IMG/VR virus record: IMGVR_UViG_3300042992_001231
Span: 1 to 48,066 of that record
Source: a virus
Reading direction: 5' to 3' (one strand)
DNA: 48,066 nucleotides
Part shown: positions 1 through 48,066 of the stretch, piece after piece
Position numbering within the stretch: the stretch's first letter is position 1
How the letters are laid out: the number at the start of each line of letters is the position of its first letter
Notes under the pieces: model-generated
Told to the model about the DNA's origin: nothing
Database searches by the model: none
Seen by the model: the letters and a program-made list of their open reading frames with translations, nothing else
Made by a program: the position numbers and the translations under genes

Positions 1-127
1 CCTTGCCATTTTGCCGCCTCTGGTGTGGCCGGTGCATAGGCTTCAAGTTCCTGTGGCCTTGGGTTGGCGTCCTTGCCTTGCAGGTCTTCGCGCTCCCCGC
101 GTCCGGCTACCACCAACGCCTTGCCTC
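1..127. repeat. Terminal overlap, left copy (identical to 47940-48066)
   Basis: The first 127 bases are repeated exactly as the last 127 bases, at an offset of 47,939. The methyltransferase gene reads through the join without interruption, which supports a circular or circularly permuted genome. A length of 127 matches a common maximum assembler k-mer, so I read it as an assembly overlap rather than a physical direct terminal repeat. Confidence 0.95.
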
Positions 128-482
128 TGGACGGTGCTCCGTTCATCTTGTCGATGCCGATGGCTACGTTGTGCGACTTCGGAAACCCCGACCCGTAAAC
201 CCACGCGATCATGTCCCGGATCTCGAACCCCGCATCCTCAATCCGTACCGCCATCCGGTGCTGCGTCCTTGTCCCTGCAAAGGCCAGCAAGTGCCCGCCC
301 GGCTTCAGAACCCGCAAGCATTCCTCCCACACCTCCACGCTTGGCACATCGTAGTCCCACTTCTTGCCCATGAACGAAAGGCCATACGGCGGGTCTGTCA
401 CGATGGCGTCCACACTGTTGTCCGGCATGGTACGCATGTAGGAAAGGCATTCTCCGTGGTGGATGCTGATAGGTTGTGTCAC
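1..482 (-). CDS. DNA methyltransferase A, N-terminal part (gene crosses the contig junction)
   Basis: This is the 5' part of a beta-class DNA amino-methyltransferase (N6-adenine or N4-cytosine) that continues at 47123-47939, 432 residues in total. The chosen start is a GTG at 482-480, giving a protein that begins VTQPISIHHGECLSYM. The catalytic motif IV, TDPPYGLSFMGKKWD, follows, then a VLKPGGHLLAF segment typical of these enzymes. The frame is also open upstream through the 41-bp repeat at 487-527, so a longer N-terminus cannot be excluded. The gene follows the portal gene closely. Whether it modifies adenine or cytosine cannot be told from the motifs alone; protection from host restriction is the usual role in phages. 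Confidence 0.9.
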   Translation of the reverse strand, partial: MTQPISIHHGECLSYMRTMPDNSVDAIVTDPPYGLSFMGKKWDYDVPSVEVWEECLRVLKPGGHLLAFAGTRTQHRMAVRIEDAGFEIRDMIAWVYGSGFPKSHNVAIGIDKMNGAPSRGKALVVAGRGEREDLQGKDANPRPQELEAYAPATPEAAKWQ

Positions 483-486
483 TTCG

Positions 487-527
487 GTAAGGTTGCTCGG
501 CCCGAAGGTAACGGTTCCGCCTATTCC
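487..527. repeat. 41-bp direct repeat, copy 1 (upstream of methyltransferase A)
   Basis: This 41-bp stretch is identical to 47070-47110. On the minus strand it sits just before the start of methyltransferase A and includes the portal stop codon. In the circular genome the two copies bracket exactly one methyltransferase gene. In both places the repeat is open in the same frame as the following methyltransferase, encoding GGTVTFGPSNLT. Confidence 0.95.
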
Positions 528-2617
528 GTGGCTCTGGCACCGGGACTATCCGGCAGGTCGTCGGTATTGCCTCCTGACCCTTCACCTTCTGGTTCTTCCG
601 CGTCGATGTCTTCAGGGCTGTCAGCGTTCTCCCCTTCGCCTGTGCCGTTGTCCTGCTCCTCTTCGCCATCGCCTCCCATGCCCATGTCAACCGCACCAGC
701 ATCCTTCTTCTCGTTGATCTCCTCGATCAGCTCCTCCACCACCTCATCGATCATCTCCTGCTGCTTGGCGCGGGCCATGGAATAGAAGTCCACCGGCTTG
801 CCGTCCTCGTCCGACATCGTGCCCGCCCGCTCCTCGCACTCGGCGAACACGTAGGCGAAGTTGGTCCACAGCACCTTGTTCTCCACGGTGGTGAGGTCTT
901 GGCTGATCATGGAAACGATGGTCGACTCACTCTTGCCAAGGAACGGGTCAAAGCTGCTCTGCACCTGGGCCTTGAGCAGTTCACGCGGGTCGTCGATGTA
1001 CAGGTCTTGCAGGATGTCGTTGTTCACCTGTGCCAGTGCGGAGGAACTTGCGCCAGCCGTCCGCATCTCGCCCATCAGCTTCACCCGCTCGGCCAAGGTC
1101 TCGAAGCGCATGTTCCTCGGGAACTCGTGGGCGACTGTGAATGACTTGCGGGCCGTCTCCGCGCTGCTCACGTACACCGCCTCCAGATTGTACACCAGCA
1201 CCCGGCTTTGGCTGTACCAATCGGCCAGGGGCTTCAGGGCATCGTACACCGCTTGCAGGTCGATGATCTCACCGGTGGCCGTGACGGCCGAGGAGCTTGC
1301 CCGGAACCGGTCCGAGTTGTAGACCGCCCGGTAGCACGACTGCTCCAGCTTGTCCACGTACTTGTCCTGCCAATCCAGCACCTCCACAGGTAGTTGGACG
1401 TAGTGGACGAGCTCGGCCAGTGGGAGCAGGTCGTCCTTCGTCCGGGGCATCGACAGGGTGATGTGGTCCTGCCCGCTTCGGTGCACCTGAAGGCCCGACC
1501 CGTTACAGGATCTGCACTTGGTCCCGCTTGGCTCGTAGCCGAGGTTGCACTCGGTCAATGTTCCATCCCCTGCCCGGTAGCCTTCGCAGCGGTTGGCGTA
1601 CATGATCTTCTGGAGAAACGCATGCAGCGCCGCGCTCAGGTCAAGCTCACTGCCCGCCTTGATGCCTTTGAGCAAATAGGGCAGCGCCGGGTGCCACATG
1701 TTCACGCACGTCTCCCCCTTGGTGCTCTGGTCTGGAACGTACCCAATGCGGAACGCTTGCACCATGCCGGTGTTGTGGGCGTAGAAGGCCACCTCGTACA
1801 GTTCATTTTGGCTGACCCTGTAATAATACCCGGCATCGCGGCCCGTAGTAATGCTGCCGAAGCTGCTCACCGGGCTGCCGTTGCTGTCCAGCACCAATCC
1901 ATCAGGCCCGCTCGTCATCTTGCCAGCGTCTACCTGCGTGAAGGTCACGTGGTTCTTGTCGGTGTACATCCAGAAGGCATTTCCTTCCTTCACAATGGTG
2001 TCCGACTTATTCCCCGTGGGCGGCTTCTTTCCCTTCTCAGCCTTGGTGATTTCCGTGTACTTGATGTCGCGGTGGACCATCAGCCAGATCAATTCCCCGT
2101 TGGCGTACCGGAAGTTCCACGCATCGGCGCTGCTCACGATGGACGGGTACCCTTTGGCCGTCTCAAAGGTGGCATTGTAATCGTCGAACAGCACCAAGCA
2201 GAAGGCGTTGGGGTCGATGGCACTCTGGTCAATCAGCACGCTGCTGAAATAGTGGTCGACGTTCTTCCCCGCGTAGAAGTTGGCGATGGCCTTGGAGAAC
2301 TTCTCATCCTCCTTGGCCTTGCCCTGTCCGAACGTTGCGCTATCGACCACGGGCTTCACCTTGGGCACCTTCCGGGCTGGTGACATCAGCGTGTTGGTGA
2401 TTGCCGGGGTGATCAGTTGGGTCAGGAGCAAGCGCTGCTTGTACGCCTGCTCGTCTTCCCTCATGTTGAAGCGCCGGATCAGATGCTCGGCCCCTTCGCC
2501 GGTGATCATGGGCCGGTAGTACTCCCGAGTGAGGCGGGTAACGCGGTCGTAGTGCCCGTGCTTGAGCTTCTGCGATACGTTGGGTAGGGCGATCCTGACG
2601 GCTTGTTCGAGGGTCAT
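521..2617 (-). CDS. Portal protein (putative)
   Basis: This 698-residue protein has the size and genome position of a portal: after the terminase genes and before the minor head protein. It begins MTLEQAVRIALPN and carries a central helical region followed by a very acidic, Gly/Glu-rich C-terminus (about the last 60 residues). Portals form the dodecameric ring through which DNA enters the head. An unusual feature is a four-cysteine insert around residues 343-373 ending in a CRSCNGSG motif, which resembles a DnaJ-type zinc-binding repeat. The stop codon lies inside a 41-bp repeat shared with the methyltransferase region. Identification rests on synteny and general features; sequence similarity was not tested. 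Confidence 0.75.
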   Translation of the reverse strand: MTLEQAVRIALPNVSQKLKHGHYDRVTRLTREYYRPMITGEGAEHLIRRFNMREDEQAYKQRLLLTQLITPAITNTLMSPARKVPKVKPVVDSATFGQGKAKEDEKFSKAIANFYAGKNVDHYFSSVLIDQSAIDPNAFCLVLFDDYNATFETAKGYPSIVSSADAWNFRYANGELIWLMVHRDIKYTEITKAEKGKKPPTGNKSDTIVKEGNAFWMYTDKNHVTFTQVDAGKMTSGPDGLVLDSNGSPVSSFGSITTGRDAGYYYRVSQNELYEVAFYAHNTGMVQAFRIGYVPDQSTKGETCVNMWHPALPYLLKGIKAGSELDLSAALHAFLQKIMYANRCEGYRAGDGTLTECNLGYEPSGTKCRSCNGSGLQVHRSGQDHITLSMPRTKDDLLPLAELVHYVQLPVEVLDWQDKYVDKLEQSCYRAVYNSDRFRASSSAVTATGEIIDLQAVYDALKPLADWYSQSRVLVYNLEAVYVSSAETARKSFTVAHEFPRNMRFETLAERVKLMGEMRTAGASSSALAQVNNDILQDLYIDDPRELLKAQVQSSFDPFLGKSESTIVSMISQDLTTVENKVLWTNFAYVFAECEERAGTMSDEDGKPVDFYSMARAKQQEMIDEVVEELIEEINEKKDAGAVDMGMGGDGEEEQDNGTGEGENADSPEDIDAEEPEGEGSGGNTDDLPDSPGARATE

Positions 2618-2635: not shown

Positions 2636-3142
2636 CTAATGTACCTCCAAGGCGATCAATATACAGGCCCCACACACCAGCGCCTCGAACACAACCGCGA
2701 ACACGAAGGGCGCGTGGGCGAACCGGGGGATGTACATCACCGTGCTCAACGTGTAAATAGTGCTTCCGTGGACTTCCTGTTTGGCAGAAATGCTATGCCA
2801 CAGCGTATCGTACTGCGCGTCGTCAGCCCTGCGGATCTCCGGCCCCATGTAGGTCGGGTGTTTCCGGTTGGCAATATTGAACACGACCCGGTGGACCATG
2901 GCGAAGGCGGCCATGCAGGCGAATGTCACCAGAAGCATCTGCAAGGCGCTGGCCTGCGCGAAGTACCCGAGGACCACGATGCCGATCCCGCCGATCAGCA
3001 GCCGCCCGGTGAGCAGGATGTCGTGCTCAAGGTTGCGGCCTACGCCGGTGGCGGTCCTCACTTGGACGAACATCGCCTCGAGGATGCCCGAGGCAATCGC
3101 ACCAATGACCGTGCAGAGAAGGCATGCAATGGGATAGCTCAT
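2636..3142 (-). CDS. Multi-pass membrane protein
   Basis: This 168-residue protein has about four hydrophobic segments: residues 4-25, 40-60, 66-88 and 145-165. The middle region is hydrophilic, with an NRKHPTYMGPEIRR stretch. It lies between large terminase and portal, separated by short gaps of 34 and 18 bp. I do not recognise a family. A phage holin or superinfection-exclusion protein is possible, but its distance from the lysis cassette argues against the main holin. Confidence 0.75.
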   Translation of the reverse strand: MSYPIACLLCTVIGAIASGILEAMFVQVRTATGVGRNLEHDILLTGRLLIGGIGIVVLGYFAQASALQMLLVTFACMAAFAMVHRVVFNIANRKHPTYMGPEIRRADDAQYDTLWHSISAKQEVHGSTIYTLSTVMYIPRFAHAPFVFAVVFEALVCGACILIALEVH

Positions 3143-3176: not shown

Positions 3177-4697
3177 TCACTTCCGCACGAACCGGGCGAA
3201 CAGGTCAGGGAACGCGCCGACCGTCAGGTAGTAGGACGCCTGCAAGCAGTGGCCGTACTTCTCGTAAGTGACGCCGGTGGCGCGGTCCTTCTCCATGACC
3301 TTCAGGATGCCCCCGTCCGCCGCCTCCTTGACCTGGATCATGTCCATCGTCGTGTTCACCATCCCCGGGTCGAACGTCACCCACAGGCCCAGCTTCCCGT
3401 CGAAGTAGGCGTTCCCGAAGTCCCGCACGATGCTGTGGGAAGGGTTCCGCCTAATCACACGGTCGCTGTTGTTGTGCAGGTAGGGCCGGAGCTCCCTCTC
3501 CACGATGTCGTAGTTGTGCCGAATGGCACCCACGACCTGCGTGGTCTTGTTCTTTCCCGTGGCGTCTCCGTAGTAGTAGCAGCCCTTGGCATGGCCAGCG
3601 AACGCCCCGTCCCGCATATCCTTGGCCATGCTCTGGGCCAGCGCCTCGGTGGTGGCGAACGGATGGCTCAGGCAGTACTCCTTCAGGAAGTGGCACCGCC
3701 AGCGCTTCTTGTCCTCCTCCCACCATATCTGCGCGGCCTGCCCGGTGATATAGGGAGCCGTGTTGAAGTCCATGGTGAAGTGCAGGGCCAGGTCCGGGTT
3801 GTACGGGACGCGGACCACGTGCTTGGCCCGGTCGTACCTGTGGAAGAACTCCCGCCCGGTCTTGCGGGTCGCGTTCCAGTCCCCATCCAGCAGGCGGGCC
3901 TTGTCGTACTCGTCGTCGCCGTCTTCCAGTTGGCGGCGGTAGCTGGCCACGTGCGCCTTGTCCGGGTTGTCCCCAAGCAAAACCAGAACCCGCGCTTGGT
4001 GGGGCTTGAGCTTCACGCGCTCTCCCTCCTTGTTCATCACGTAGCGGTACTTGGTCCAGTAGTCGCCCGGGTTGCCGGTGATCAGCAGCTTTGGCACCAT
4101 CCCCTTGGACCACGTGCCGCAGTTGTAGCACTCCCACTGGACCGGGTTGCCCTCGTCGTCGCAGTCCACCGCCTTGGACTTCACGGCCAGTCCATCCGCA
4201 GCGCAGGCGTGGCAGATCTCGGTGGTCCGGTATCGCAGGCGGCCGGATAGCACCCCGACGCCACGCTCCTCCACCTGGTCCCCTTCATCCACGAAGGCGT
4301 ATGTGTAGGCCCGGCCCCCGAGGCGCGAATAGTTCGGGTCCTTGGGTTCGTACTTCAGGTAATCCAGTTCAATCGTGCTCCCGTTGTAGAACAGGAAGCC
4401 CTTGCCCTCGGTGTATCGGAAATGGACCCCGTCCTTCAGGCCGGACTTGTCCAGCACCTCAAACAGCGTCACAAGGGAGGATTTCCGAAGGTCTTCGGAT
4501 GATGCCCGGAAGATGGCTGTGCGAATGGCTCGGTACTTCAGGCAGGAAAGAACCAGCCAAAAGCAGCCGAGGAAGGTCTTACCCGGCCCGGCCGATCCGC
4601 CGAAGAAGACCTCCTTCTTGGTCTGGTCGTGCAGGTAGTGCCATGCGTTGGACGCCCCTTGGCCGAGTGGTCGTATGCCGCTGGCCTGCTCATTCAT
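3177..4697 (-). CDS. terL: Terminase large subunit
   Basis: This 506-residue protein is the DNA-packaging motor ATPase and nuclease. Walker A is GGSAGPGKT at about residue 34, and Walker B with the catalytic acid is YAFVDEGDQ near residue 134. The C-terminal half has nuclease-like aspartates, including FTMDFNTAP and YYYGDATGKN. Two cysteine pairs (CHAC and CYNC, residues about 160-195) suggest a zinc-binding insert between Walker B and the coupling motif LLITGNPGDYW. It overlaps the small terminase by 8 bp, as expected for a translationally coupled pair. The length is usual for the family. Confidence 0.93.
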   Translation of the reverse strand: MNEQASGIRPLGQGASNAWHYLHDQTKKEVFFGGSAGPGKTFLGCFWLVLSCLKYRAIRTAIFRASSEDLRKSSLVTLFEVLDKSGLKDGVHFRYTEGKGFLFYNGSTIELDYLKYEPKDPNYSRLGGRAYTYAFVDEGDQVEERGVGVLSGRLRYRTTEICHACAADGLAVKSKAVDCDDEGNPVQWECYNCGTWSKGMVPKLLITGNPGDYWTKYRYVMNKEGERVKLKPHQARVLVLLGDNPDKAHVASYRRQLEDGDDEYDKARLLDGDWNATRKTGREFFHRYDRAKHVVRVPYNPDLALHFTMDFNTAPYITGQAAQIWWEEDKKRWRCHFLKEYCLSHPFATTEALAQSMAKDMRDGAFAGHAKGCYYYGDATGKNKTTQVVGAIRHNYDIVERELRPYLHNNSDRVIRRNPSHSIVRDFGNAYFDGKLGLWVTFDPGMVNTTMDMIQVKEAADGGILKVMEKDRATGVTYEKYGHCLQASYYLTVGAFPDLFARFVRK

Positions 4698-5016
4698 CGT
4701 CCGGGGTTGGCGGTTGGACCGTGACGTTGATCACCGGGGGCGTGGTGACCAGTGATCCGGAGTGCTCATGCTGCTGGCGGGCCTTTCCGTACCCCCGGTC
4801 CAGCAGGATCTCGGCGGCGCGTAGGTCGCCCTTCGCTGCCTTGGCCCGGAGGACGCGCAGGATGGCCTCCAGTGCCGTGAGTTCGTCCTTTTCCTCCCCC
4901 AGCACATTGGCCATCAGCTTTTCCAAGTCGGGCAGCTTCTTGGGTCTCCCGTTTGGGTTGCCGGATTGGCCCTTCTTGAACCGGCTGTGCTCGGGTGGGT
5001 TCGGTCCCTGTTTCAT
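4690..5016 (-). CDS. terS: Terminase small subunit (DUF5681-like)
   Basis: This 108-residue protein starts at an ATG overlapping the stop of the preceding methyltransferase (ATGA). Its N-terminus carries FKKGQSGNPNGRPKKLP, the hallmark of DUF5681-type phage proteins that are usually encoded just before the large terminase. A central helical region (residues 30-80) could bind DNA and oligomerise, and the C-terminus is Pro/Thr-rich and acidic. It overlaps terL by 8 bp. The role is inferred from the motif and position: recognition of the packaging site and recruitment of TerL. Confidence 0.8.
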   Translation of the reverse strand: MKQGPNPPEHSRFKKGQSGNPNGRPKKLPDLEKLMANVLGEEKDELTALEAILRVLRAKAAKGDLRAAEILLDRGYGKARQQHEHSGSLVTTPPVINVTVQPPTPDDE

Positions 5017-6563
5017 CCCTGTAAGGTTTCCTGTTCGACCTTGTCTGCGGCCACCTCCTCGAAGGTCCTGCCAGTGGCCTCGTGAATGGCCTTGTTCCCC
5101 GTGAACGCTTCCCAACGCTTCACGGCCACGTCCACGTAGGCGGGCGTCAGTTCCATGCCGTAGCAGGTGCGTCCGCTTACCTGTGCGGCCATGATGGTCG
5201 AACCGCTTCCAATGAATGGCTCGAGCACAATGCCTCCCACTGGGCAACTGGAGCGGATGGCGCGTTCGGTCAGTGCTACCGGCTTGGGTGTTGCGTGTCC
5301 GTGGCGCTCCTCTCCCGTTACTCGGGGGAACTCCCACACGTCCCGCATGATGTCGTGGGCGTTGTCGAAGAACGTGCGGGTCCCGTTGAACTGGCGGCTG
5401 AGTTCGTCCTTCACAGCATCCCATTCCCGCTTGAGCTCCTTCCACTCGCGCTTGAAGTGTCCCGGGTATGCTTCGCGCAGGGTCCGGTAGTGCTTGTCCG
5501 GGATCAGGGTGAACTGCGACCGGCTGAACCAGTGGCCGTACATGGAGCACCCGCAGACGCGCTTGATGTCGCCCGGTGCGATTCCGGCTGTCTTGGCTTC
5601 GGCTTCAAGGGATGCGCGAAGCGGCTCCCAACTGTCGGGGAAGTCCTCCGTGTTGATGTTCCCCAGGAACTGCTTGCCGATCTGAAAGAACAGGCAGCGC
5701 TCACTGGCCTCGGGGTACTGGGTGAGGTCCGGCGATGCCATTCCGGGCACGGCCTTCTTGTCCCATACGATCTCGTTGCGAATCTCCAGGTACTCGGAAG
5801 CCGAAAGGCCGCCAACGTACCACAGCCGCCAAAGGTCTGGAGCGTTCCCCCAGACGTAGGCGCTGCCGTTGTGCTCCATGTGTGGGCGGATGGTGCGCCA
5901 CCAGTTCATCTGGAACTCGTCCAGCTTGGCTTTGTACAGGTTGTCGTTCTCCACCCCATCCGCCTCCTTTCCCATCCCGTATGGCGGGTCGGCGTGGCAC
6001 AGGGAGGCCTGCTTGCCGTTCATCAGCCTTGCCACGTTCTCGGCGATGGTGGAATCCCCGCACATCAGGCGGTGGTCTCCAAGCCTCCAAACGTCCCCGG
6101 GCTGCGTCACGGGCTCCACCGGGATGGTCGGGATGTCATCGGGCTCGGTGTAACCTCCGCCCATTTCGCTGCCGAAGCCTTTGGGCAGGTCCATTCCCCA
6201 GTCCGAAAGCTGGTCGGCGTCCCATTCGTTGGCCAGCGCGTCCCAGTCCCATTCACCGAAGCCCACGTTGTCCTTGATCACGAACTGCTGGCGCTGCTCC
6301 TCGCTCCAATGGTCGGCAAGCATCACCGGTGCCTCCTTGATCTTCAGGTCTTGCAGGGCCTTCAGGCGCATGTTCCCGCCCAGCACCATGAACGTCCCGT
6401 CGGCCTGGCTCACGGCCACGATCGCCCGGTAGTTGAGCATGTCGGGGAAGTCGGTGATGGACTTCTTGAGCTTGGCGAACTTCTCGTCCCGAAGGACGCG
6501 GGGGTTGTTGGGGTTCCCCTTGAGCTTGCCCAGTGGGATGTTAATCGGGCCGTTGGTCTTCAT
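5013..6563 (-). CDS. ParB-like domain fused to DNA methyltransferase
   Basis: The protein has 516 residues from ATG 6563. Residues 1-95 are a ParB/Srx-type domain, with INIPLGKLKGNPNNPR followed by MVLGGNMRLKAL. Residues about 165-500 form a beta-class amino-methyltransferase: an HADPPYGMG catalytic motif, then LEPFIGSGST, the SAM-binding motif, near the C-terminus. ParB-methyltransferase fusions are common in phages and prophages, where they modify phage DNA. The start was chosen because sequence upstream in this frame reads as antisense-like basic sequence, and because the ATG overlaps the upstream stop at 6560. Immediate coupling to terS is notable. Confidence 0.9.
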   Translation of the reverse strand: MKTNGPINIPLGKLKGNPNNPRVLRDEKFAKLKKSITDFPDMLNYRAIVAVSQADGTFMVLGGNMRLKALQDLKIKEAPVMLADHWSEEQRQQFVIKDNVGFGEWDWDALANEWDADQLSDWGMDLPKGFGSEMGGGYTEPDDIPTIPVEPVTQPGDVWRLGDHRLMCGDSTIAENVARLMNGKQASLCHADPPYGMGKEADGVENDNLYKAKLDEFQMNWWRTIRPHMEHNGSAYVWGNAPDLWRLWYVGGLSASEYLEIRNEIVWDKKAVPGMASPDLTQYPEASERCLFFQIGKQFLGNINTEDFPDSWEPLRASLEAEAKTAGIAPGDIKRVCGCSMYGHWFSRSQFTLIPDKHYRTLREAYPGHFKREWKELKREWDAVKDELSRQFNGTRTFFDNAHDIMRDVWEFPRVTGEERHGHATPKPVALTERAIRSSCPVGGIVLEPFIGSGSTIMAAQVSGRTCYGMELTPAYVDVAVKRWEAFTGNKAIHEATGRTFEEVAADKVEQETLQG

Positions 6564-8593: not shown

Positions 8594-8946
8594 GGCAGGA
8601 TCTTGTTCTTCATGCAGTGCTCCCAGCATACGCGGTCGATGGCGTCCCGCATGGTGTAGCCAGCCCGCACCACGTCGAGCTCGTTGATCTTGTAGGCGTC
8701 GTAGGTGTCGAACCCGTCCAGCGACTTCACCTTTATGTGAAGTTCCCACTCGTTCGTGCATGGGTCCACGGTCATGCGGAGCTCGCCAGCTTCAGCCGCC
8801 GCCCATACCAGCGGGTCGAATTCGGCCTTCCGCTCGATGGCCCACTGCACCCGCTTGATCGCGTAGGCGATGCGGGCAAGTACCCAGCGGGTGAACTTGA
8901 ACCAGCGGAAGCGCATCGGCATCTGGTACTTCTTAGGGGTGCTCAT
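8590..8946 (-). CDS. Hypothetical protein
   Basis: A 118-residue protein with a basic, aromatic N-terminal amphipathic region (RFRWFKFTRWVLARIAYAI) that could associate with membranes. The C-terminal half is acidic, with HIKVKSLDGFDTYDAYK and two cysteines in CWEHCMKN. It overlaps both neighbours by 4 bp within the sugar island. Unknown function; membrane tethering is only an inference from the amphipathic segment. Confidence 0.65.
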   Translation of the reverse strand: MSTPKKYQMPMRFRWFKFTRWVLARIAYAIKRVQWAIERKAEFDPLVWAAAEAGELRMTVDPCTNEWELHIKVKSLDGFDTYDAYKINELDVVRAGYTMRDAIDRVCWEHCMKNKILP

Positions 8947-9143
8947 TGTGACTGGTTCTTGTCCGAATTGCGCATCCTGATCACTTCATCCGCCATAGCC
9001 TTCAGCAGCTCCAAGACGTATGGGGCGCTGTCCTTTCCGCGCAGCTTGGTCGGGTGGCTTGTCTCGTAGTTGTTCTTCCAAGACGAATCAATCGCCTCAT
9101 CCATTTCGATGGTCGTGCAGTCGTGGGTTACTCGGATTTTCAT
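8943..9143 (-). CDS. Hypothetical small protein
   Basis: A 66-residue protein starting at ATG 9143, chosen because it overlaps the stop of the FkbM-type gene by 4 bp. It has a short beta-like start (MKIRVTHDCTTIEMDE) and a C-terminal helix. I do not recognise it. Confidence 0.6.
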   Translation of the reverse strand: MKIRVTHDCTTIEMDEAIDSSWKNNYETSHPTKLRGKDSAPYVLELLKAMADEVIRMRNSDKNQSQ

Positions 9144-13053: not shown

Positions 13054-13082
13054 GGCGCTGTTTGTGTTCGTTGTTGACGATC

Positions 13083-13114
13083 CAAAGATGGGGGTATGCC
13101 TTTCAAATATGCAA
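13083..13114 (-). promoter_or_regulatory. Promoter P4, Bacteroidota type
   Basis: On the minus strand, TTG (13114-13112), a 21-bp spacer and CATCTTTG (13090-13083) match the Bacteroidota vegetative promoter pattern of TTG/TTTG and TAnnTTTG, with C for T at the first -7 base. Upstream flank includes GCTTGCATATTTG. It drives the 13053 gene and those downstream. It is nearly identical to P3. Confidence 0.72.
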
Positions 13115-13130
13115 GCGGTAAGGAAAGAAA

Positions 13131-15685: not shown

Positions 15686-15718
15686 CGTGGTAGGTGTTTG
15701 TGTTCGTTGTTGAGAATG

Positions 15719-15750
15719 CAAAGATGGGGGTATGCCTTTCAAATATGCAA
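15719..15750 (-). promoter_or_regulatory. Promoter P3, Bacteroidota type
   Basis: Minus strand TTG (15750-15748), 21-bp spacer, CATCTTTG (15726-15719). The block from the operator at 15779 through promoter and leader to the ATG region is almost the same as the P4 block, so the two promoters probably arose by duplication or recombination. Confidence 0.72.
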
Positions 15751-15767
15751 GCGAAAAGGCAAAGAAA

Positions 15768-20967: not shown

Positions 20968-21858
20968 TCAGGCTTCGGGTGCAAGTATAGGGACTTCCGC
21001 CGCCTCTGCAAGCGCGTCCTTCAAGATTTCAGCCTCGGCGGGGTCGCACTCCTCCAGGTAGGCGAAGATGGCCGTGAGCCGATCATCCACCTCACAAGCG
21101 AACGCCCGCACCCGAGCCTCCATCCGCTCGATGAACTCCTCGTCCCGCTGCACCCGGATCTGGACCATCCACATCGAAGGCGGGAAGCGGTTGTCGAAGC
21201 TCACGAAGTCGCACCACTGGCGACCGCTTACCCATAGCTGTCCCTGCACCTGCTCGAAGTACTCCTCGGGCAGTTCCCGGGCCATCCATGTGGCCAGATG
21301 GGTCTTGCTCTCCGGGCACTTGATCTCCAGCAGGCCGGGGCCGTCCGGGTCTCCTTCCACGAACCCGTCAGGCGTTGCGGCGATGCGCGTGTCCCGCAGG
21401 ATCAGCATCTGGGCCTTGCGAACATCCGCGAAGTTGACCGCAGCGTAGTGGTCGAAGGCATCGGCCTCCGTATCGTTCCCGTGGTCCATGGCTGCGGACT
21501 TTCCGCCTGCCTTATCCCGTCCGGTGACCGCCGAGGCGACAATCTCCATCATGTAGGACCGGGCCGTATCACCCCAGCAGTAGGTTCCGTTGCGCTCGGC
21601 CGCTTCCATGACCATCTGGCCAAGGCCGTCGACCTCCACCTTCTGCCCGGCGCGGGGTCCGGTCTTCAGGACCTTGTACCGCTCGGCCTCGGACACCAGA
21701 TGCGCGTGGTCCTGCACGAACTTCCGGGGCGGCGTGCGGGGCGGCGTCATCACGTCCGCGAACCGTGACCCGGTCACCTTGCCGCGTCGGACTTTGGCCC
21801 ATGCGGTGGGGTTGCTCTGTACCGGGCCAAGGATGATGTTGTCGGGGTGCCAGATCAT
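20968..21858 (-). CDS. YqaJ-type viral recombinase / exonuclease
   Basis: A 296-residue protein. The PD-(D/E)XK layout is clear: AMDHGNDTEADAF (the G-x-x-x-E helix), TRIAATPDGFVEGD, LLEIKCPESKTHLATW and EYFEQVQGQLWVSG, matching lambda-exonuclease/YqaJ enzymes that resect double-strand ends. It overlaps recT by 4 bp, forming a two-component recombination system. A gap of 125 bp to the next gene (20843-20967) holds no convincing promoter. Confidence 0.92.
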   Translation of the reverse strand: MIWHPDNIILGPVQSNPTAWAKVRRGKVTGSRFADVMTPPRTPPRKFVQDHAHLVSEAERYKVLKTGPRAGQKVEVDGLGQMVMEAAERNGTYCWGDTARSYMMEIVASAVTGRDKAGGKSAAMDHGNDTEADAFDHYAAVNFADVRKAQMLILRDTRIAATPDGFVEGDPDGPGLLEIKCPESKTHLATWMARELPEEYFEQVQGQLWVSGRQWCDFVSFDNRFPPSMWMVQIRVQRDEEFIERMEARVRAFACEVDDRLTAIFAYLEECDPAEAEILKDALAEAAEVPILAPEA

Positions 21859-22817
21859 GACCAGAGGCGGGTTCGAATGCCCTCCCAGAAGGCGATGTTG
21901 ACGCGGCCCTTCTTCGCCTCCTCCACGAGCTCCTTGTGCATGGCGTCCTTGTCCTGTCCCTTGTAGTCGTCAATCAGCGCCCGAACCTCGGCCATGATCT
22001 CGGTCTGCTTGGCCCGGTCCTCCGATCCCGCAGCGATGCCCGTGGGCCCTGCAAGGTCGAACCCTGCGTTGTCAAGTTCGACAGCCTCAAGGAATGCCTC
22101 ACTCTTGGGCGTGCGGGGGATGTACTTCTGCAACCGCTTGAGCAGGGACTTGCGCGCCATCTCGCCCTCCCAGTCATTGTAGACCGATCCGCTGGCGTTG
22201 TCCGACTTGCTGCGGATCTTGCGAAGCTCGTCGGCCCCCATGTGCTCGGGGATGATCGAACCGTCCGCGAGGGTCGCCATTCCGTAGACCCCGATGATTA
22301 CGCCCCGCTCCTTGGATCGGGTCCAGTAGGGCTTGTGGACGGTTGGCCGCTTGGTCACAAGGTCGAACTCGAACTCGTCACCCTGGTACACCTCGTGCAC
22401 CTCAAAGGACCGGACCGCTCCGGTATCCGTGGCCACCTTCATCAGGCCCATGTAGGAGGGCTCAGGCATCGCCCGCTTCTCCCACTTGTCCGCCTGCCCC
22501 GGCGTCTTGATCTTGATATTCCGGGGAATCAGGTAGACCTCCTTCTTCACCGGGTTGAGGCTCAGGCCCGAGGATGCGACGGCCACCAGCACACCCACGA
22601 TGCTGTTCTGGGTGCATTCCTGAAGGGCCGGGGTATTGTTGACGGCCGCCAGCAGGAAGGATGCCTCCTGCATGAACCGCTCCTTGCTGCCGAACATGGC
22701 GATGCAGCGGTCCTCAATCGGCCGGAAGCGTTCCAGCGCCTTGTCGTTGGTGGTTGGTGGTGCCGGTGGCGGCGCTTGGGTTGCCGGTGCGGCTTGGTCT
22801 TGTGCCTTGTCTGTCAT
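21855..22817 (-). CDS. recT: RecT-family single-strand annealing protein
   Basis: A 320-residue protein. A Pro/Ala-rich N-terminus is followed by the RecT core: TPALQECTQNSIVGVLVAVA, then GLSLNPVKKEVYLIPR, then PSYMGLMKVATDTGAV and GWATL-like IIGVYGMATLADGS. The C-terminal part is helical. It anneals complementary single strands made by the adjacent YqaJ-type exonuclease. The length agrees with the family. Confidence 0.93.
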   Translation of the reverse strand: MTDKAQDQAAPATQAPPPAPPTTNDKALERFRPIEDRCIAMFGSKERFMQEASFLLAAVNNTPALQECTQNSIVGVLVAVASSGLSLNPVKKEVYLIPRNIKIKTPGQADKWEKRAMPEPSYMGLMKVATDTGAVRSFEVHEVYQGDEFEFDLVTKRPTVHKPYWTRSKERGVIIGVYGMATLADGSIIPEHMGADELRKIRSKSDNASGSVYNDWEGEMARKSLLKRLQKYIPRTPKSEAFLEAVELDNAGFDLAGPTGIAAGSEDRAKQTEIMAEVRALIDDYKGQDKDAMHKELVEEAKKGRVNIAFWEGIRTRLWS

Positions 22818-38878: not shown

Positions 38879-39115
38879 TTAAAATCCCGAGTGTTTCTTT
38901 GCGGAAGACACCTCATCGTCGGCCTCAACAACGTGCCGGAGAGCGCGTTGAAGGTCGTACTTCACAATCGGGTCGGTTGCAGCAGCGAGCGCCCGCTGAA
39001 GAGCCTGCCCATAGCTTGCCCCGAGCGCTTCCAATCGCTGCGCCGTTTGAGGATCGAACCCAGTCCCCTTCGAACCTGCTGGTACCGCCTTGCCGCCTTG
39101 GTATTTTACTGCCAT
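38879..39115 (-). CDS. Tagged small protein 5 (MAVKYQGGKAVP)
   Basis: A 78-residue protein with the N-terminal tag MAVKYQGGKAVP shared by five small genes here. The rest is two predicted helices (FDPQTAQRLEALGASYG, then KYDLQRALRHVVEAD). The leader (GACCTACAACG) is A-rich and lacks a Shine-Dalgarno. It lies between the adhesin-like gene and a neck protein. Function unknown; the tag could direct a common binding, packaging or processing step. Confidence 0.75.
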   Translation of the reverse strand: MAVKYQGGKAVPAGSKGTGFDPQTAQRLEALGASYGQALQRALAAATDPIVKYDLQRALRHVVEADDEVSSAKKHSGF

Positions 39116-39127
39116 CGTTGTAGGTCT

Positions 39128-39655
39128 TTATGATTCAAGAAATCGTTCTGCGAACCCGGTCATCCGCTCTTTGCTGTCGGCCCCCAGTTCGTTTACTTCT
39201 TTCTCAGACAGGCTGAACCAGTCCTTCCGGTAGTTGTCGTTGCCCTCCATCTTGCCCCGCGTCTCCTCCGTGCGGCCCGTCACAATCACCTTGACACCCT
39301 TGTCCGTGTCAATCACTTCGGTCAGCCCGATGTTCGAGAGCATCCGCCCAGTGAGCGTGAAGTTCACGAATCCCGTAAAGCGACCGACCGGCTGGTCACC
39401 AGATGCCGGTGCCGTGGCCCGACGTGCCCGCTGCTTGGCCGACTTGTTGCCGCCGACCGCCTGGCGCTTGAACGCTTCGTATGCTGGCGTGTATGGAGTG
39501 AATGGCGTCCCGTTCTGGTCCCTCCCCGTCTCGCTTACCCGCTGGATGACCTTGGAAAGCCCGTCCGTGGCGACCGTCTCCATCTCGGTGCGTAGCGCAC
39601 TCTGAAGGACAGGCACCAACTCGTTCAGGCGGGCTTCAAGGTCCTGGAGGGTCAT
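39128..39655 (-). CDS. Neck / tail-completion protein (HK97 gp10-like)
   Basis: A 175-residue protein, basic and helical at the N-terminus (LQDLEARLNELVPVLQSALR), with GRDQNGTPFTPYTPAYEAFK, then basic residues, and TGFVNFTLTGRMLSNIGLTE. This order, with a TGRML segment, is typical of the virion-morphogenesis/HK97 gp10 family at head-tail joints. It overlaps the next tagged gene by 4 bp. Confidence 0.72.
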   Translation of the reverse strand: MTLQDLEARLNELVPVLQSALRTEMETVATDGLSKVIQRVSETGRDQNGTPFTPYTPAYEAFKRQAVGGNKSAKQRARRATAPASGDQPVGRFTGFVNFTLTGRMLSNIGLTEVIDTDKGVKVIVTGRTEETRGKMEGNDNYRKDWFSLSEKEVNELGADSKERMTGFAERFLES

Positions 39656-39885
39656 GGGTTGATGCGCTTGGTCTTCATGTCCTGATCCAGCGCCATGGTC
39701 AGGTCATTCATTGCTCTGGTAACGGCAGGGCTGAAGTTACCTCCAGCCTTCCGCTTCGCATCGTAAAGCATAACCATGGCCCTCTTCGCATCGCGATATG
39801 CCTGAGCGAACTGCTCGTACTCCTCGACGTCATTTTGAGAATTACGGGCTGGAACGGCCTTGCCGCCTTGGTATCTCAATGCCAT
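39652..39885 (-). CDS. Tagged small protein 4 (MALRYQGGKAVP)
   Basis: A 77-residue protein with the shared tag (MALRYQGGKAVP), then two helices (YEQFAQAYRDAKRAMVMLYD, then VTRAMNDLTMALDQDMK). Leader ACACAAACACCTACAACG is nearly the same as that of the 15685 gene. Codons in the tag differ synonymously from the other copies, so the protein sequence, not just the DNA, seems to be kept. Confidence 0.75.
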   Translation of the reverse strand: MALRYQGGKAVPARNSQNDVEEYEQFAQAYRDAKRAMVMLYDAKRKAGGNFSPAVTRAMNDLTMALDQDMKTKRINP

Positions 39886-39933
39886 CGTTGTAGGTGTTTG
39901 TGTTTACGGGTTAATGGCTTAGAGGGTCATGGG

Positions 39934-40122
39934 TCACTCCTTGATCAGCATTTGCGCTTCCACCACGCGGGTGATTGCGTTCTGAAGGATTCCGCTCAGG
40001 CGGTTGGCCTTGGCGCGGTCCATGCCCGGAATCCGTCCGACCTGCTGTTGGATGGCCTCTAGTTGGTCCAAGGCGTCGTCCATCTTTCTCGCAACCATGG
40101 AGGCTTCCCGTGAGTTACCCAC
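39934..40122 (-). CDS. Probable tagless member of the tagged family
   Basis: A 62-residue protein from GTG 40122 (ATG 40098 is an alternative). It starts GNSREASMVARKMDDALDQL and has two helices like the tagged proteins (second helix AKANRLSGILQNAITRVVEA). The in-frame codons just upstream read IIPVGNS, matching only the end of the tag, and are preceded by a stop codon, so the tag appears lost or truncated. Flanked by tagged genes on both sides. Confidence 0.6.
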   Translation of the reverse strand: MGNSREASMVARKMDDALDQLEAIQQQVGRIPGMDRAKANRLSGILQNAITRVVEAQMLIKE

Positions 40123-40151
40123 CGGTATGATTCAAGGAATTGGGTCATGGG

Positions 40152-40457
40152 TTACGCTTTCACCAGGTAGTGACGGCGCATGAATTGCTCAAGCGTTTCT
40201 CCGTCCATGATGTCCTTGAAGATGATACCCTCTTTGGTGGTCTTGCCAAGTGCCACCATGGTCCTTTGCATCCTGATCCCAACCCTTGAATCGTGATACC
40301 CGGGCTGTTCTTGGATGTTCATCGGCTCAAGGAAGAAGCCAGGCGGCATTGTCGTCTCCTTGAGTTTTTTGGGGAGACCCATTAAGATCTTTCTTGCGTT
40401 CTCAAGGGCTGGGACCCTGAATGGTACCGCCTTGCCTCCTTGGAATTTCACTGCCAT
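40152..40457 (-). CDS. Tagged small protein 3 (MAVKFQGGKAVP)
   Basis: A 101-residue protein with the tag MAVKFQGGKAVP. The body differs from the other members: after a Lys-rich helix (ENARKILMGLPKKLKET) it has a Pro/Gly-rich part (PPGFFLEPMNIQEQPGYHD) and a C-terminal basic helix. It is the longest member and may have a different partner while sharing the tag. Confidence 0.75.
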   Translation of the reverse strand: MAVKFQGGKAVPFRVPALENARKILMGLPKKLKETTMPPGFFLEPMNIQEQPGYHDSRVGIRMQRTMVALGKTTKEGIIFKDIMDGETLEQFMRRHYLVKA

Positions 40458-40458
40458 G

Positions 40459-41622
40459 TTAGCTTAGGATTGTGCTCCGGCGCATGCCCCAGCGGTCTTT
40501 GCACCGCCGACAGTCGCCGTAGCTGTTGATGTTCTGCTCCTCGGAAAACTTCACGCACAGGTACCCTTGGATCCCGTCGCTGAAGGTCTTGTTGTAGCTA
40601 TCACGCAACGCCTCAAGCTGGTCGCCTGCCGTCATCGTGTAGCGGTTGATTGATGTGCTTTGCAGGATCTGGGTAATCAGGTTGGCCCCGGCCTTGAACC
40701 GCATGGTGTGGGCCAGCACGTTCATCACCTCGTCGTATCGGTAGTTCGGCGCGTCCGGGCAGAAGGTGCTGCGAATATCGCACTCGAACTGGACCTTGAT
40801 CAGAAGGCCCTGCGTAGCGTTCACCGTACCCCATTCGCTGCGGCGGTCCAGGTCGTTGCCGCTGGTGCCAGCAGCCATGCACCACTCGGCCCAAAGCCTG
40901 CCGTTCTTCTGCTGGATGCTCTGGTACTGCGGCCGGTTCTCGTCCCATGTGGGCCTGAAGCCTCCGCAGCCGCAGGAGCACTCGCTGTTCATTGCCGTCA
41001 GCCCTTCGGTGGGTTCGTACAACGCCCAGAAGCGCGGGTTGCCGGTGCCGAGCTCGCTCATGTCCAAGTCCAGCGGCTCGGGGAGCGTGGTCCATACGAT
41101 GCGGCCGGACGTGGCGGGTAGCGGGTAGGTGATCAGCGGAACGTCACCATCGTACTCCGTGCGGCCGTAGATGCTCACCGGGATCGTTGCGGGGACCGTG
41201 CCCTTGAAGGCCGTGGCGATGGCAACGATACGGAAGTGACCGCCCCGGACCTTCGCGGTCTGGATGGTCATGCCGTGGTACGACTTGGTGAGGCGGTGGG
41301 CTGTCTTGGCGGCGTTCTTCTCGTCGCCGATTACCGCGATGCCATCCTGCCTGCGGGCGTCCGTCCCCGCACCGATGCAGGCCCCGAGCTCGCTGATCGT
41401 GTCCTCGATGCCCGATGCCCGCGCCTTGTCCAGCATGTCCCAAAGGCCACCATCACCGCAGTCCTGCGCGTTGGATAGCAGTTGCAGGGACAGGCCGGGG
41501 AGTTCGTCGAGGAACAGGCCGCTCTCGCTGACGTTGGCCCCCACGGCGATCGGGTCCACGCACGCGCAGTCCTTGCGGGATAACCCGAAGACGTCAGTGA
41601 AGCAGGCGAGGTCGGCGCTCAT
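40459..41622 (-). CDS. Neck / structural protein, Cys-rich
   Basis: A 387-residue protein. N-terminal CFTDVFGLSRKDCACVD, a middle with HFRIVAIATAFKGTVPATI and SIYGRTEYDGDVPLITYPLP, and cysteine clusters NSECSCGCGGFRP and YGDCRRCKDRW. The many cysteines may bind metal. Located among head-tail joining genes, it is probably part of the neck or connector. No family recognised. Confidence 0.65.
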   Translation of the reverse strand: MSADLACFTDVFGLSRKDCACVDPIAVGANVSESGLFLDELPGLSLQLLSNAQDCGDGGLWDMLDKARASGIEDTISELGACIGAGTDARRQDGIAVIGDEKNAAKTAHRLTKSYHGMTIQTAKVRGGHFRIVAIATAFKGTVPATIPVSIYGRTEYDGDVPLITYPLPATSGRIVWTTLPEPLDLDMSELGTGNPRFWALYEPTEGLTAMNSECSCGCGGFRPTWDENRPQYQSIQQKNGRLWAEWCMAAGTSGNDLDRRSEWGTVNATQGLLIKVQFECDIRSTFCPDAPNYRYDEVMNVLAHTMRFKAGANLITQILQSTSINRYTMTAGDQLEALRDSYNKTFSDGIQGYLCVKFSEEQNINSYGDCRRCKDRWGMRRSTILS

Positions 41623-41625
41623 GGG

Positions 41626-41874
41626 TTAGCGGCCGTTGCGTTCAACGATGGAGTTGATGAACTTCCGCAGCATCTGGTCTGCCTGCTGAAGTGCCCGCAT
41701 TTCCTCGGTGGTTGCAACGCCAAGTTGCGAGACCTTGCTCAACAGGTCGGACATAGCGCCTTGTGCTTCAACCATGGCCGGTGAAACATTCCTGAAAGCG
41801 GCCATGTATGCCTGACGACGAGCGTCCGGTTGTCCCGCTGGGACCATCCTGCCCCCTTGTACCTTCATTGCCAT
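41626..41874 (-). CDS. Tagged small protein 2 (MAMKVQGGRMVP)
   Basis: An 82-residue protein with the tag MAMKVQGGRMVP and two helices (AYMAAFRNVSPAMVEAQGAM, then EEMRALQQADQMLRKFINSI). It overlaps none of its neighbours and ends 3 bp before the Cys-rich neck gene. Closest in tag to tagged protein 1. Confidence 0.75.
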   Translation of the reverse strand: MAMKVQGGRMVPAGQPDARRQAYMAAFRNVSPAMVEAQGAMSDLLSKVSQLGVATTEEMRALQQADQMLRKFINSIVERNGR

Positions 41875-41896
41875 AGTCGTGTGTGTTTTCGTTGGG

Positions 41897-42172
41897 TTAC
41901 TGGGTTACAATTCGCTGGGCAGAGTTCTGCGCCATGGCAATCGCCGACTTGGAATCGCGCAGCGCCTTGACAACGGCCTCGATCTTGGTCGGGTTGACGT
42001 CCCCCGGCTTTGCGCTGCCTTTGATCTCGCTTACCCATTGAAGGGCCTCATCGACCTTGCCTAATTTCAGGGCTTCTTGCAGTCTATACTCACGGTTTCG
42101 GAGCCAATCCCTGCGGGCCACTACGTCCCGGGAAAGTGGGACCATCCTGCCCCCTTCTACTTTCATTGCCAT
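41897..42172 (-). CDS. Tagged small protein 1 (MAMKVEGGRMVP)
   Basis: A 91-residue protein, first gene after promoter P1 with leader CAACAAAGCACAAACAC. The tag is MAMKVEGGRMVP. Two or three helices follow (REYRLQEALKLGKVDEAL, then IEAVVKALRDSKSAIAMAQN). Because it is promoter-proximal and the family is repeated, high expression is likely. Confidence 0.75.
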   Translation of the reverse strand: MAMKVEGGRMVPLSRDVVARRDWLRNREYRLQEALKLGKVDEALQWVSEIKGSAKPGDVNPTKIEAVVKALRDSKSAIAMAQNSAQRIVTQ

Positions 42173-42195: not shown

Positions 42196-42226
42196 CAAAG
42201 GTGCAGCGCGTCTTTCAAATATGCAA
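42196..42226 (-). promoter_or_regulatory. Promoter P1, neck/tail operon
   Basis: Minus strand TTG (42226-42224), 20-bp spacer, CACCTTTG (42203-42196). Shares GCTTGCATATTTGAAAG with P3 and P4. It follows the terminator at 42274-42297. A perfect TACATTTG at 42258-42251 upstream lacks a matching -33 box. Confidence 0.7.
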
Positions 42227-42273
42227 GCGCCTCGGCAATTATCTGCGCACCAAATGTAGGGGGCAAATGAGAA

Positions 42274-46197: not shown

Positions 46198-46216
46198 GCC
46201 GTGCGAAGGTATGCCT

Positions 46217-47065
46217 TCACAGCAATCGGACCTGTATGGAGGAAAGGCGTTGGTGTGATAGTGTGATGTAGTCGGTGTTCAACTCACACAACACAGCCTT
46301 TCGGCCTTCCTCCAAAGCCACCAATGCCGTAGTCCCTGAGCCGCCGAACGGATCCAGCACGGTGCCATCCTTCGGGCACCCTGCCAAGATGCAGGGGCGA
46401 ATCAACTCGGGCGGGAACGTGGCGAAGTGCGCTCCGCTGTATGTGCTCACTGGAACATTCCACACATCCGGCCTCAGCTTTGTTTCTCCGCCATCAGCTT
46501 CCACTCGCACTGCGTCCCCGTCGAACCAGTAAGTGTCCCGCTTTGAGAACAGAAAGATGTGTTCATGACTACGGACGAAGCGATCGCGCACCTTTTCTGG
46601 CGTATAGTTCGGCTTGGCCCAGATAATTTCCTGCCGCAAGTACCAGCCAGCGTCTTGCATTGCGAATGCGAAGCGCCACGGGATTCCCATCAACTCCTTG
46701 TTCTTGAAACCATCCAGTTCCAGTAGCTTCTTGGTCCTATGTGGCGCTCCGCTTATCGGCATGCCGCGCTGGTTTCCATTGCTTCCGCTATGTGGGGGAA
46801 ACTTTCCGTCTTTGAATCCCGCATAGGTGTCGCCGATATTCACGAAGAGCACACCGTCATCTCGCAGAACCCGCGATACTTCTCGGAACACGTCCACCAG
46901 CTTGGCAACGTACTCGGGCGCTCTTTGCTCAAGGCCGATCTGCCCGTCGTGCCCGTAGTCCCGAAGGCCGAAGTACGGCGGGCTGGTAACGCAACAGTGA
47001 ACGGATCGGTCGGGTAGGGTGCGCAGCGATGCAAGGCAGTCGCCTTGCAGGATCTGGTAGGTCAT
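46217..47065 (-). CDS. DNA methyltransferase B
   Basis: A 282-residue beta-class DNA amino-methyltransferase. The catalytic motif CCVTSPPYFGLRDYG comes early (residue about 28), followed by LRDDGVLFVNIGDTYAG and, near the C-terminus, DPFGGSGTTALVALEEGRK. TSPPY is most often found in N4-cytosine enzymes, but N6-adenine ones also use it. The start ATG at 47065 follows a copy of the 41-bp repeat and the frame is open above it into that repeat. It lies just after methyltransferase A. Confidence 0.92.
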   Translation of the reverse strand: MTYQILQGDCLASLRTLPDRSVHCCVTSPPYFGLRDYGHDGQIGLEQRAPEYVAKLVDVFREVSRVLRDDGVLFVNIGDTYAGFKDGKFPPHSGSNGNQRGMPISGAPHRTKKLLELDGFKNKELMGIPWRFAFAMQDAGWYLRQEIIWAKPNYTPEKVRDRFVRSHEHIFLFSKRDTYWFDGDAVRVEADGGETKLRPDVWNVPVSTYSGAHFATFPPELIRPCILAGCPKDGTVLDPFGGSGTTALVALEEGRKAVLCELNTDYITLSHQRLSSIQVRLL

Positions 47066-47069
47066 GGCC

Positions 47070-47110
47070 GTAAGGTTGCTCGGCCCGAAGGTAACGGTTC
47101 CGCCTATTCC
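47070..47110. repeat. 41-bp direct repeat, copy 2 (between the two methyltransferases)
   Basis: Identical to 487-527. It lies between the stop of methyltransferase A (47123) and the start of methyltransferase B (47065). In the circular genome, one repeat unit including methyltransferase A is 1,356 bp, a multiple of three. Confidence 0.95.
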
Positions 47111-47122
47111 AAGGTAGCGCAG

Positions 47123-48066
47123 TCAGTCGAACAGCGTGGGCTGCTCCGTTGGCCTGGCGTCCATCTTGGCCCCGTCTATCCGCGCCTGTGCTATGGCCAC
47201 GTACTCGGCCTCGCGTTCGATGCCGATGAAGTTGAACCCTTCCAGCTTGGCGCCTTTGCCTGTGGATCCGCTGCCCATGAACGGGTCAAGGATGGTTCCG
47301 CCCGGAGGGGTCACAAGGCGGCACAGGTAGCGCATCAGCGCTGTTGGCTTGACGGTGGGGTGGTGGTTGCGGCTCTGTGCCTTGAATCGGTCCCTCGCGT
47401 TCCCGTCATCGTCAACCGGCATCGCCCCACCCATTCCGCTCTGGTGCGTCACCAACTCCATCCCCTCGCACCCTTCATCCCGATCCGCCTTGCTCGCCTT
47501 GGCGCAGTAGAAGAAGCGGGCGGCGCTGCCGGTGTCGCCGCCCCATTCGCCGGTGAATGGTGGGCGCGAACTTTCAACCCAAGGATTTGCGCCCGTTGCG
47601 TGATGCGCTTGCAATTTGCCGCTCGTCGTCACCGGGAACAGCGCCACCACCTCGTCGCTGCCGTCGTGGATCAGGTTCGCGGGCCAGCGGCCGGTGGTAG
47701 TTGTGCCCCCATGGCGGCTTCCTGAGAGGCCATTCCCATATGCAGTGACGTGCTCGCCAGACCCGAAACCATCGCCGTGGCTGATGATCAGTGGCCGGCC
47801 TTCCACAGCCTCCACCCTGCACCCATCCACATTTAGCGCCCCAGTGCCGTGCTCCAGCACGTTCGCGGCCACGGTGCCGGTCAGCGGCTTGCGGGCCATG
47901 GTGATCGGCTCAAGGGCTGGCTTTAGGGCGGTGCCCCATCCTTGCCATTTTGCCGCCTCTGGTGTGGCCGGTGCATAGGCTTCAAGTTCCTGTGGCCTTG
48001 GGTTGGCGTCCTTGCCTTGCAGGTCTTCGCGCTCCCCGCGTCCGGCTACCACCAACGCCTTGCCTC
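47123..48066 (-). CDS. DNA methyltransferase A, C-terminal part (joins 1-482 through the circle)
   Basis: The 3' part of the gene described at 1-482; 47940-48066 duplicates 1-127. It holds the target-recognition region (CAKASKADRDEGCEGMELVT), NHHPTVKPTALMRYLCRLV and the SAM-binding motif LDPFMGSGSTGKGAKLEG, followed by NFIGIEREAEYVAIAQARI. Motif IV upstream and motif I near the C-terminus define the beta class. The end, TEQPTLFD, is followed 12 bases later by the 41-bp repeat. Confidence 0.92.
   Translation of the reverse strand, partial: GKALVVAGRGEREDLQGKDANPRPQELEAYAPATPEAAKWQGWGTALKPALEPITMARKPLTGTVAANVLEHGTGALNVDGCRVEAVEGRPLIISHGDGFGSGEHVTAYGNGLSGSRHGGTTTTGRWPANLIHDGSDEVVALFPVTTSGKLQAHHATGANPWVESSRPPFTGEWGGDTGSAARFFYCAKASKADRDEGCEGMELVTHQSGMGGAMPVDDDGNARDRFKAQSRNHHPTVKPTALMRYLCRLVTPPGGTILDPFMGSGSTGKGAKLEGFNFIGIEREAEYVAIAQARIDGAKMDARPTEQPTLFD
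47940..48066. repeat. Terminal overlap, right copy (identical to 1-127)
   Basis: See the left copy. Removing one copy leaves a 47,939-bp circle. Confidence 0.95.

What the first reader, a model, noticed from the sequence alone, without database searches (positions are those of the whole stretch)
47070..47110. 41-bp direct repeats bracket one methyltransferase gene as a removable cassette
Identical 41-bp copies lie at 487-527 and 47070-47110, just before methyltransferase A and just after it. One repeat unit is 1,356 bp, divisible by three, and each copy is in the same frame as the following methyltransferase. Recombination between copies would delete methyltransferase A cleanly and place methyltransferase B after the portal. 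This looks like a gain/loss site for modification genes.
Basis: partly seen in the sequence, partly recalled or inferred. Interest (0 to 1): 0.75.

Follow-up and report, generated by a model that had tools for sequence, protein, structure and literature searches.

The report
Repeated leader brackets phage methyltransferase gene
A virus of bacteria carries two different DNA-methylating genes, each preceded by the same 41-letter leader, wedged between two genes that overlap in its relatives; relatives have none or one of the two, so this is a real gene gain-and-loss site, of a kind already known in phages.

Summary
The window's ends overlap by 127 bp, so the true circle is 47,939 bp and the two identical 41-bp copies lie 1,356 bp apart. 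An independent assembly (L001, 99.98% identical) carries the same arrangement. On the minus strand the order is portal – repeat – MTase A – repeat – MTase B – gene g5. Six contigs (portal 31-98% identical) have portal and g5 overlapping, with no MTase between them; the closest lack the repeat. L006 has only MTase B, with most of the repeat as its leader. Deleting one repeat unit in silico gives a sequence that aligns end to end with L006. The repeat is therefore not an ancestral site: it is MTase B's 5' leader plus the portal's last bases, most likely duplicated when MTase A was added next to B. The phage encodes RecT plus a YqaJ exonuclease, suited to recombining short homologies. Gain and loss of orphan MTases in phage packaging modules is already published, so this is a well-resolved new example of a known kind. 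Ongoing excision and an expression role for the leader are unproven.

The parts
521..2617 (-). portal protein; its stop codon TAG (521-523) lies inside repeat copy 1
   Evidence: PHROG phrog_7376 portal, E 1.3e-11; ends ...ATE*
487..527 (-). repeat copy 1: last 7 nt of the portal gene plus leader of MTase A
3..482 (-). MTase A, N-terminal part (GTG start at 482); continues across the circle junction into 47123-48064; 432 aa, DPPY motif
   Evidence: Pfam N6_N4_Mtase E 1e-33
47123..48064 (-). MTase A, C-terminal part (overlaps the N-terminal part through the 127-bp end overlap); stop TGA at 47123-47125
47070..47110 (-). repeat copy 2: relic of the portal end (GGAAT) plus leader of MTase B
   Evidence: L006 carries the 34-nt 3' part of the leader in front of MTase B, directly after its portal gene
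46217..47065 (-). MTase B, 282 aa, SPPY motif
   Evidence: Pfam N6_N4_Mtase E 4.5e-47; phrog_67 E 5.1e-75
46198..46216 (-). 19-nt spacer between MTase B and g5 (AGGCATACCTTCGCACGGC), identical in L006; CACGGCATGA at its end resembles the methyltransferase-free portal/g5 junction of L010
45265..46197 (-). g5, conserved gene that overlaps the portal gene in relatives without methyltransferases; no family match
1..127 (.). terminal overlap, identical to 47940-48066; the window is a circular assembly of 47,939 bp
   Evidence: L001 spans the junction
20968..22817 (-). YqaJ-type exonuclease (20968-21858) and RecT annealing protein (21855-22817): phage-borne recombination of short homologies
   Evidence: PF09588 E 1.1e-23, PF03837 E 1.9e-33; PHROGs
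5013..6560 (-). third methyltransferase (ParB-like domain plus N6_N4_Mtase) upstream of TerL; a second variable methyltransferase slot
   Evidence: absent in L005, small-terminase-like gene in its place in L008, present in L007 and L011

Best explanation
The 41-bp repeat is the duplicated 5' leader of MTase B plus the last bases of the portal gene. The portal/g5 junction, where stop and start codons overlap, is an insertion slot in this phage group. MTase B with its leader entered first, the state seen in L006. MTase A was then added in front of B by recombination at the leader, which duplicated the stretch from the portal end through the leader and left perfect 41-bp repeats on both sides of A. 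Each methyltransferase gene therefore has the same leader directly before its start codon. Because the repeats are identical and the phage encodes RecT plus a YqaJ exonuclease, recombination between copies (in one genome or between co-infecting relatives) would remove A cleanly and restore portal-leader-B. The two orphan methyltransferases most likely protect the phage DNA from different host restriction enzymes. Shown: the repeat, the circle, the zero/one/two states, B with leader alone, absence of the repeat at the closest junctions without methyltransferase, and the recombinase genes. Inferred: the order B then A, RecT as the agent, the leader as an expression signal, and anti-restriction as the function.
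For: Exact repeat in two assemblies. Junctions without methyltransferase: L005, L009 (same contig as L007) and L010 (same contig as L008) have the portal TGA and g5 ATG overlapping as ATGA, with no trace of the repeat; L176, L011 and L012 (portal about 60, 50 and 33% identical) have the same overlap. L006 has portal-leader-MTase B-g5, with the leader's 34-nt 3' part 100% identical while the MTase B body is 83%. The predicted deletion product aligns with L006 over 4,335 bp with 3 gap bases. Copy 2 includes GGAAT of the portal end although it sits between A and B. A and B are not copies of each other (29-31% identity in fragments), so this is not tandem gene duplication. MTase B has low GC3 (0.678; portal 0.825, g5 0.865), fifth lowest of 30 genes measured. 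RecT and YqaJ are present; PMC3945230 shows such Rad52-like recombinases driving exchange at short homologies, citing about 30 bp as the minimum for Red-beta.
Against: No reads, so no excised or mixed state was observed in one population. Only one relative has the one-gene state, and no relative carries A with the leader but without B, so the donor of A is unknown. The polarity argument rests on five nucleotides (GGAAT). No promoter, stem-loop or Shine-Dalgarno signal stands out in the leader, so its role in expression is inference. Some other genes in this genome have GC3 as low as MTase B.
Confidence: 0.72

Rival explanations
1. The repeat is primarily a conserved expression element (translation start region, or a promoter recognised by the phage or host) that any gene inserted at this slot needs, kept identical by selection; its use in recombination is incidental.
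For: It sits 4 nt upstream of both start codons. The 34-nt leader is identical in L006 while the MTase B body is 83%. The genome holds other repeated leaders in front of genes (D1, D2, D5).
Against: No sigma-70 promoter match, no unusual folding, no Shine-Dalgarno-like motif. Exact identity over the full 41 bp, including the portal-derived GGAAT, is not explained by leader function alone.
Confidence: 0.3
2. Recombination linker: the leader and the B/g5 spacer are conserved boundary sequences at which related phages swap methyltransferase cassettes by homologous recombination.
For: L006 and the window share identical runs of 64 nt (leader plus B start) and 78 nt (B end plus g5 start) flanking a divergent B body; permuted alignments reach a 64-nt run in 43 of 2000 and a 78-nt run in 6 of 2000.
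Against: Only two occupied lineages are known; uneven divergence along a gene can give such runs. No case with the same borders and a different gene was found.
Confidence: 0.25
3. Removal device: the repeats are maintained so that MTase A can be excised regularly (phase variation by deletion).
For: Clean predicted product that matches the gene order of L006.
Against: Both known assemblies of this lineage carry A; L006 is a separate lineage by sequence; a one-way deletion is not a switch; no site-specific recombinase was seen at the site.
Confidence: 0.05
4. Assembly artefact: the repeat and the tandem arrangement were made by the assembler at the contig ends.
For: The repeat lies near the ends of the linear contig, and the window ends overlap by 127 bp, a common assembler k-mer length.
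Against: An independent 8.3-kb contig spans the whole site with both copies at 99.98% identity; 41 bp is shorter than the 127-bp overlap.
Confidence: 0.02

Closest known systems
Flexible gene modules / metagenomic islands with orphan methyltransferases in cryoconite phages (Bellas 2020, PMC7468147)
   Same: Orphan DNA methyltransferases are the commonest known gene in the variable islands; in a Mu-like phage a 2-kb variable region of the packaging module held two methyltransferases, one, or an acetyltransferase instead, in near-identical genomes.
   Different: In the passages read here no shared leader repeat at the boundary or order of acquisition is described; here the junctions are resolved to the base.
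Methyltransferases in the packaging module of lactococcal 936-type phages (Murphy 2014, PMC4190342)
   Same: Orphan methyltransferases inserted next to terminase genes, in a region called a hotspot for genetic insertions; the paper's title states protection against restriction endonuclease activity.
   Different: Inserted between small and large terminase genes, not portal/g5; no direct repeat reported in the passages read.
PeSL mobile regulatory cassettes of T4-type phages (Arbiol 2010, Comeau 2014; seen only as cited in PMC4503421)
   Same: Short repeated regulatory sequences between genes that give homology for gene gain and loss.
   Different: PeSLs combine an early promoter with a terminator-like stem-loop; neither was detected in the 41-bp repeat.
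Mosaicism by Rad52-like phage recombinases (De Paepe 2014, PMC3945230)
   Same: RecT-class annealing proteins recombine short homologies during lytic growth; this phage encodes RecT and a YqaJ exonuclease.
   Different: Shown for lambdoid phages in E. coli; not tested for this phage.

Membership tests
Variable methyltransferase island in a phage packaging module | Presence/absence of an orphan methyltransferase at the same site among close relatives | tested here: met
   Zero in L005, L007, L008; B only in L006; A and B in window and L001
Variable methyltransferase island in a phage packaging module | No cognate restriction endonuclease beside it | tested here: inconclusive
   No other gene lies between portal and g5; g5 matches no Pfam, PHROG or PADLOC model; not every gene of the genome was scanned against PADLOC
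Variable methyltransferase island in a phage packaging module | Methylates phage DNA and protects it from restriction | not testable with these tools
   Needs methylome or plating assays
PeSL regulatory cassette | Promoter in the repeat | tested here: not met
   No sigma-70-type match; other promoter types are not covered by the scan
PeSL regulatory cassette | Stem-loop or terminator in the repeat | tested here: not met
   Folding energy of the repeat -8.0 against a shuffled mean of -9.1; no terminator match in the repeat
Transposon or homing-endonuclease insertion | Transposase or homing endonuclease within the inserted unit, or inverted terminal repeats | tested here: not met
   The 1,356-bp unit holds only MTase A; no inverted repeats of 20 nt or more in the window
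Tandem gene duplication | The two genes are copies of each other | tested here: not met
   A and B align only in fragments at 29-31% identity

The most novel reading that the evidence does not exclude
The leader is a dedicated mobile boundary element that travels with orphan methyltransferase genes: it supplies their start signal and serves as the homology at which further methyltransferases are stacked or removed at the portal/g5 slot, an integron-like stacking of modification genes by general phage recombination.
Probability: 0.12. Interest if true: 0.6.

Novelty: new member of a known kind. Interest (0 to 1): 0.38.

Why it matters
The site offers base-level junctions for a process usually seen only as coverage gaps: a junction without insert, one methyltransferase, and two methyltransferases with a duplicated leader. 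It suggests how phages could stack modification genes without harming neighbouring structural genes, and how such a gene could later be lost precisely. The proposed mechanism (short repeat plus RecT) can be tested directly.

Tried and rejected
Assembly artefact: rejected, since L001 spans the site. Tandem duplication of one methyltransferase: rejected. Transposon or homing element: no such gene or inverted repeats. Promoter, terminator or structured-RNA role: no consensus match, no unusual fold, no Rfam match in the window. The 8-mer TACCTTCG, found in the leader and in the B/g5 spacer, was considered as a shared signal; it occurs six times on the minus strand, some within genes, and was not pursued. 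The leader elsewhere: no match in other viral contigs or in the bacterial and archaeal genome collection. Cultured relatives: none by DNA (first 24 kb) or by portal protein. The portal query in bacterial genomes gave no relative. Closest MTase A and B relatives elsewhere (L017, L095) lack the leader; L095 carries an A-like gene overlapping the end of a large-terminase gene.

Full report
Observation. The window is a circular phage assembly: its first and last 127 bp are identical, so the circle is 47,939 bp. Two exact 41-bp copies lie at 487-527 and 47070-47110, both read on the minus strand; no further copy exists even with three mismatches and none is expected by chance. On the circle they are 1,356 bp apart. 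A second, independent contig (L001, 8,276 bp, 99.98% identical) runs through the junction and contains both copies at the same spacing.

Anatomy. On the minus strand the order is: ParB-methyltransferase (5013-6560), large terminase (3177-4697), a small gene (2636-3142), portal (521-2617), repeat 1, MTase A (GTG 482, wrapping to 47123), repeat 2, MTase B (47065-46217), g5 (46197-45265). The repeat starts inside the last codons of the portal gene (GGAATAG includes its GAA TAG) and ends 4 nt before the start codon of each methyltransferase. After A's TGA there is no in-frame ATG, GTG or TTG until the ATG of B, so the shared frame is not evidence of a fusion. A carries DPPY and B carries SPPY. By the usual rule for this superfamily (general knowledge), A is probably an adenine-N6 enzyme and B a cytosine-N4 enzyme; this is inference. 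The nearest solved sequences are CcrM for A, and for B an unnamed methyltransferase followed by a DNA cytosine-N4 methyltransferase. The two proteins match each other only in fragments at 29-31% identity.

Relatives without the genes. In L005, L009 (same contig as L007) and L010 (same contig as L008), with portals 87-98% identical, the portal stop and g5 start overlap as ATGA and no trace of the repeat is present. L176 (60% portal identity) and L011 (50%) show the same kind of overlap, and in L012 (33%) the two ORFs share one base. This adjacency is therefore taken as the ancestral state.

Relative with one gene. L006 has portal, then GAATAGAAGTAACCGTTACCTTCGGGCCGAGCAACCTTACGGCC (starting with the portal's last codon), then ATG of MTase B, then g5. 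The 34-nt 3' part of this leader is identical to the window although the body of MTase B is 83% identical and the g5 part 93%. Joining the two repeat copies of the window in silico gives a segment that aligns with L006 in a single 4,335-bp block with 3 gap bases, whereas the unmodified segment aligns in two blocks.

Order of events. Copy 2 sits between A and B yet begins with GGAAT, which belongs to the portal end. The simplest reading is that B with its leader was once next to the portal, as in L006, and that A arrived later with duplication of the stretch from the portal end to the leader. This rests on five nucleotides and is moderately strong. Whether L006 is the ancestral one-gene state or a revertant that lost A cannot be told.

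The leader. No promoter match, terminator, unusual fold or Rfam family was found. Most genes inspected in this genome lack an obvious Shine-Dalgarno sequence, and several share repeated leaders, so a role as a start region is plausible but untested. The leader was not found in any other viral contig or in the bacterial and archaeal genome collection.

Mechanism. The phage encodes RecT (21855-22817) and a YqaJ-type exonuclease (20968-21858). Rad52-like recombinases drive phage mosaicism at short homologies, with about 30 bp cited as the minimum for Red-beta (PMC3945230). A 41-bp identical repeat is thus a sufficient substrate in principle. Gain of A by crossover at the leader with a co-infecting relative, and loss by recombination between copies, are both inferred; neither was observed.

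A wider pattern. The slot upstream of the large terminase is variable too: ParB-methyltransferase in the window, L007 and (50% identical in its best part) L011; nothing in L005; a small-terminase-like gene in L008. In the distant relative L178 the portal/g5 slot holds a peptidase M15 gene. A gene-sized segment at about 8595-9139 is absent from L005 and L007 with junctions at a start codon.

Comparison with what is known. Presence/absence of orphan methyltransferases in phage packaging modules is published: in cryoconite phages they are the commonest known gene in variable islands, with two, one or no methyltransferase at one site (PMC7468147), and in 936-type phages they sit between terminase genes (PMC4190342). 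Short repeated cassettes that promote shuffling are known in T4-type phages (PeSLs, cited in PMC4503421), but those carry promoter and stem-loop features not detected here. The finding is a new, finely resolved member of a known kind.

Noticed in passing
window 1-127 and 47940-48066: 127-bp terminal overlap; the window is a circular assembly, and MTase A is split across its ends.
   Followed up: yes
window 5013-6560 (-): ParB-domain methyltransferase upstream of the large terminase, a second variable slot: absent in L005, replaced by a GP3-like small-terminase gene in L008, present in L007 and L011.
   Followed up: partly
window 38879-42172 (-): Several genes with a shared leader and a shared N-terminus (MAxKxQGGKxVP), like repeated tags at the start of otherwise different proteins.
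   Followed up: no
window 13059-13126, 15695-15762, 42212-42238: Repeats of 27-68 nt, possibly a repeated promoter or leader (CTTGCATATTTGAAAG on the minus strand).
   Followed up: no
window 521-2617 (-): Portal protein with a cysteine-rich zinc-finger-like insert (CRSCNGSG); its cysteines are conserved in relatives down to about 33% identity.
   Followed up: no
L178 3676-4158: Peptidase M15 gene between portal and g5 in a distant relative, so the slot takes other cargo as well.
   Followed up: partly
window 8595-9139: Gene-sized segment absent in L005 and L007, with junctions at a start codon (shared CATGAA).
   Followed up: partly
L008 11027-12970: About 1.9 kb of extra genes directly after g5, without Pfam matches.
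   Followed up: partly
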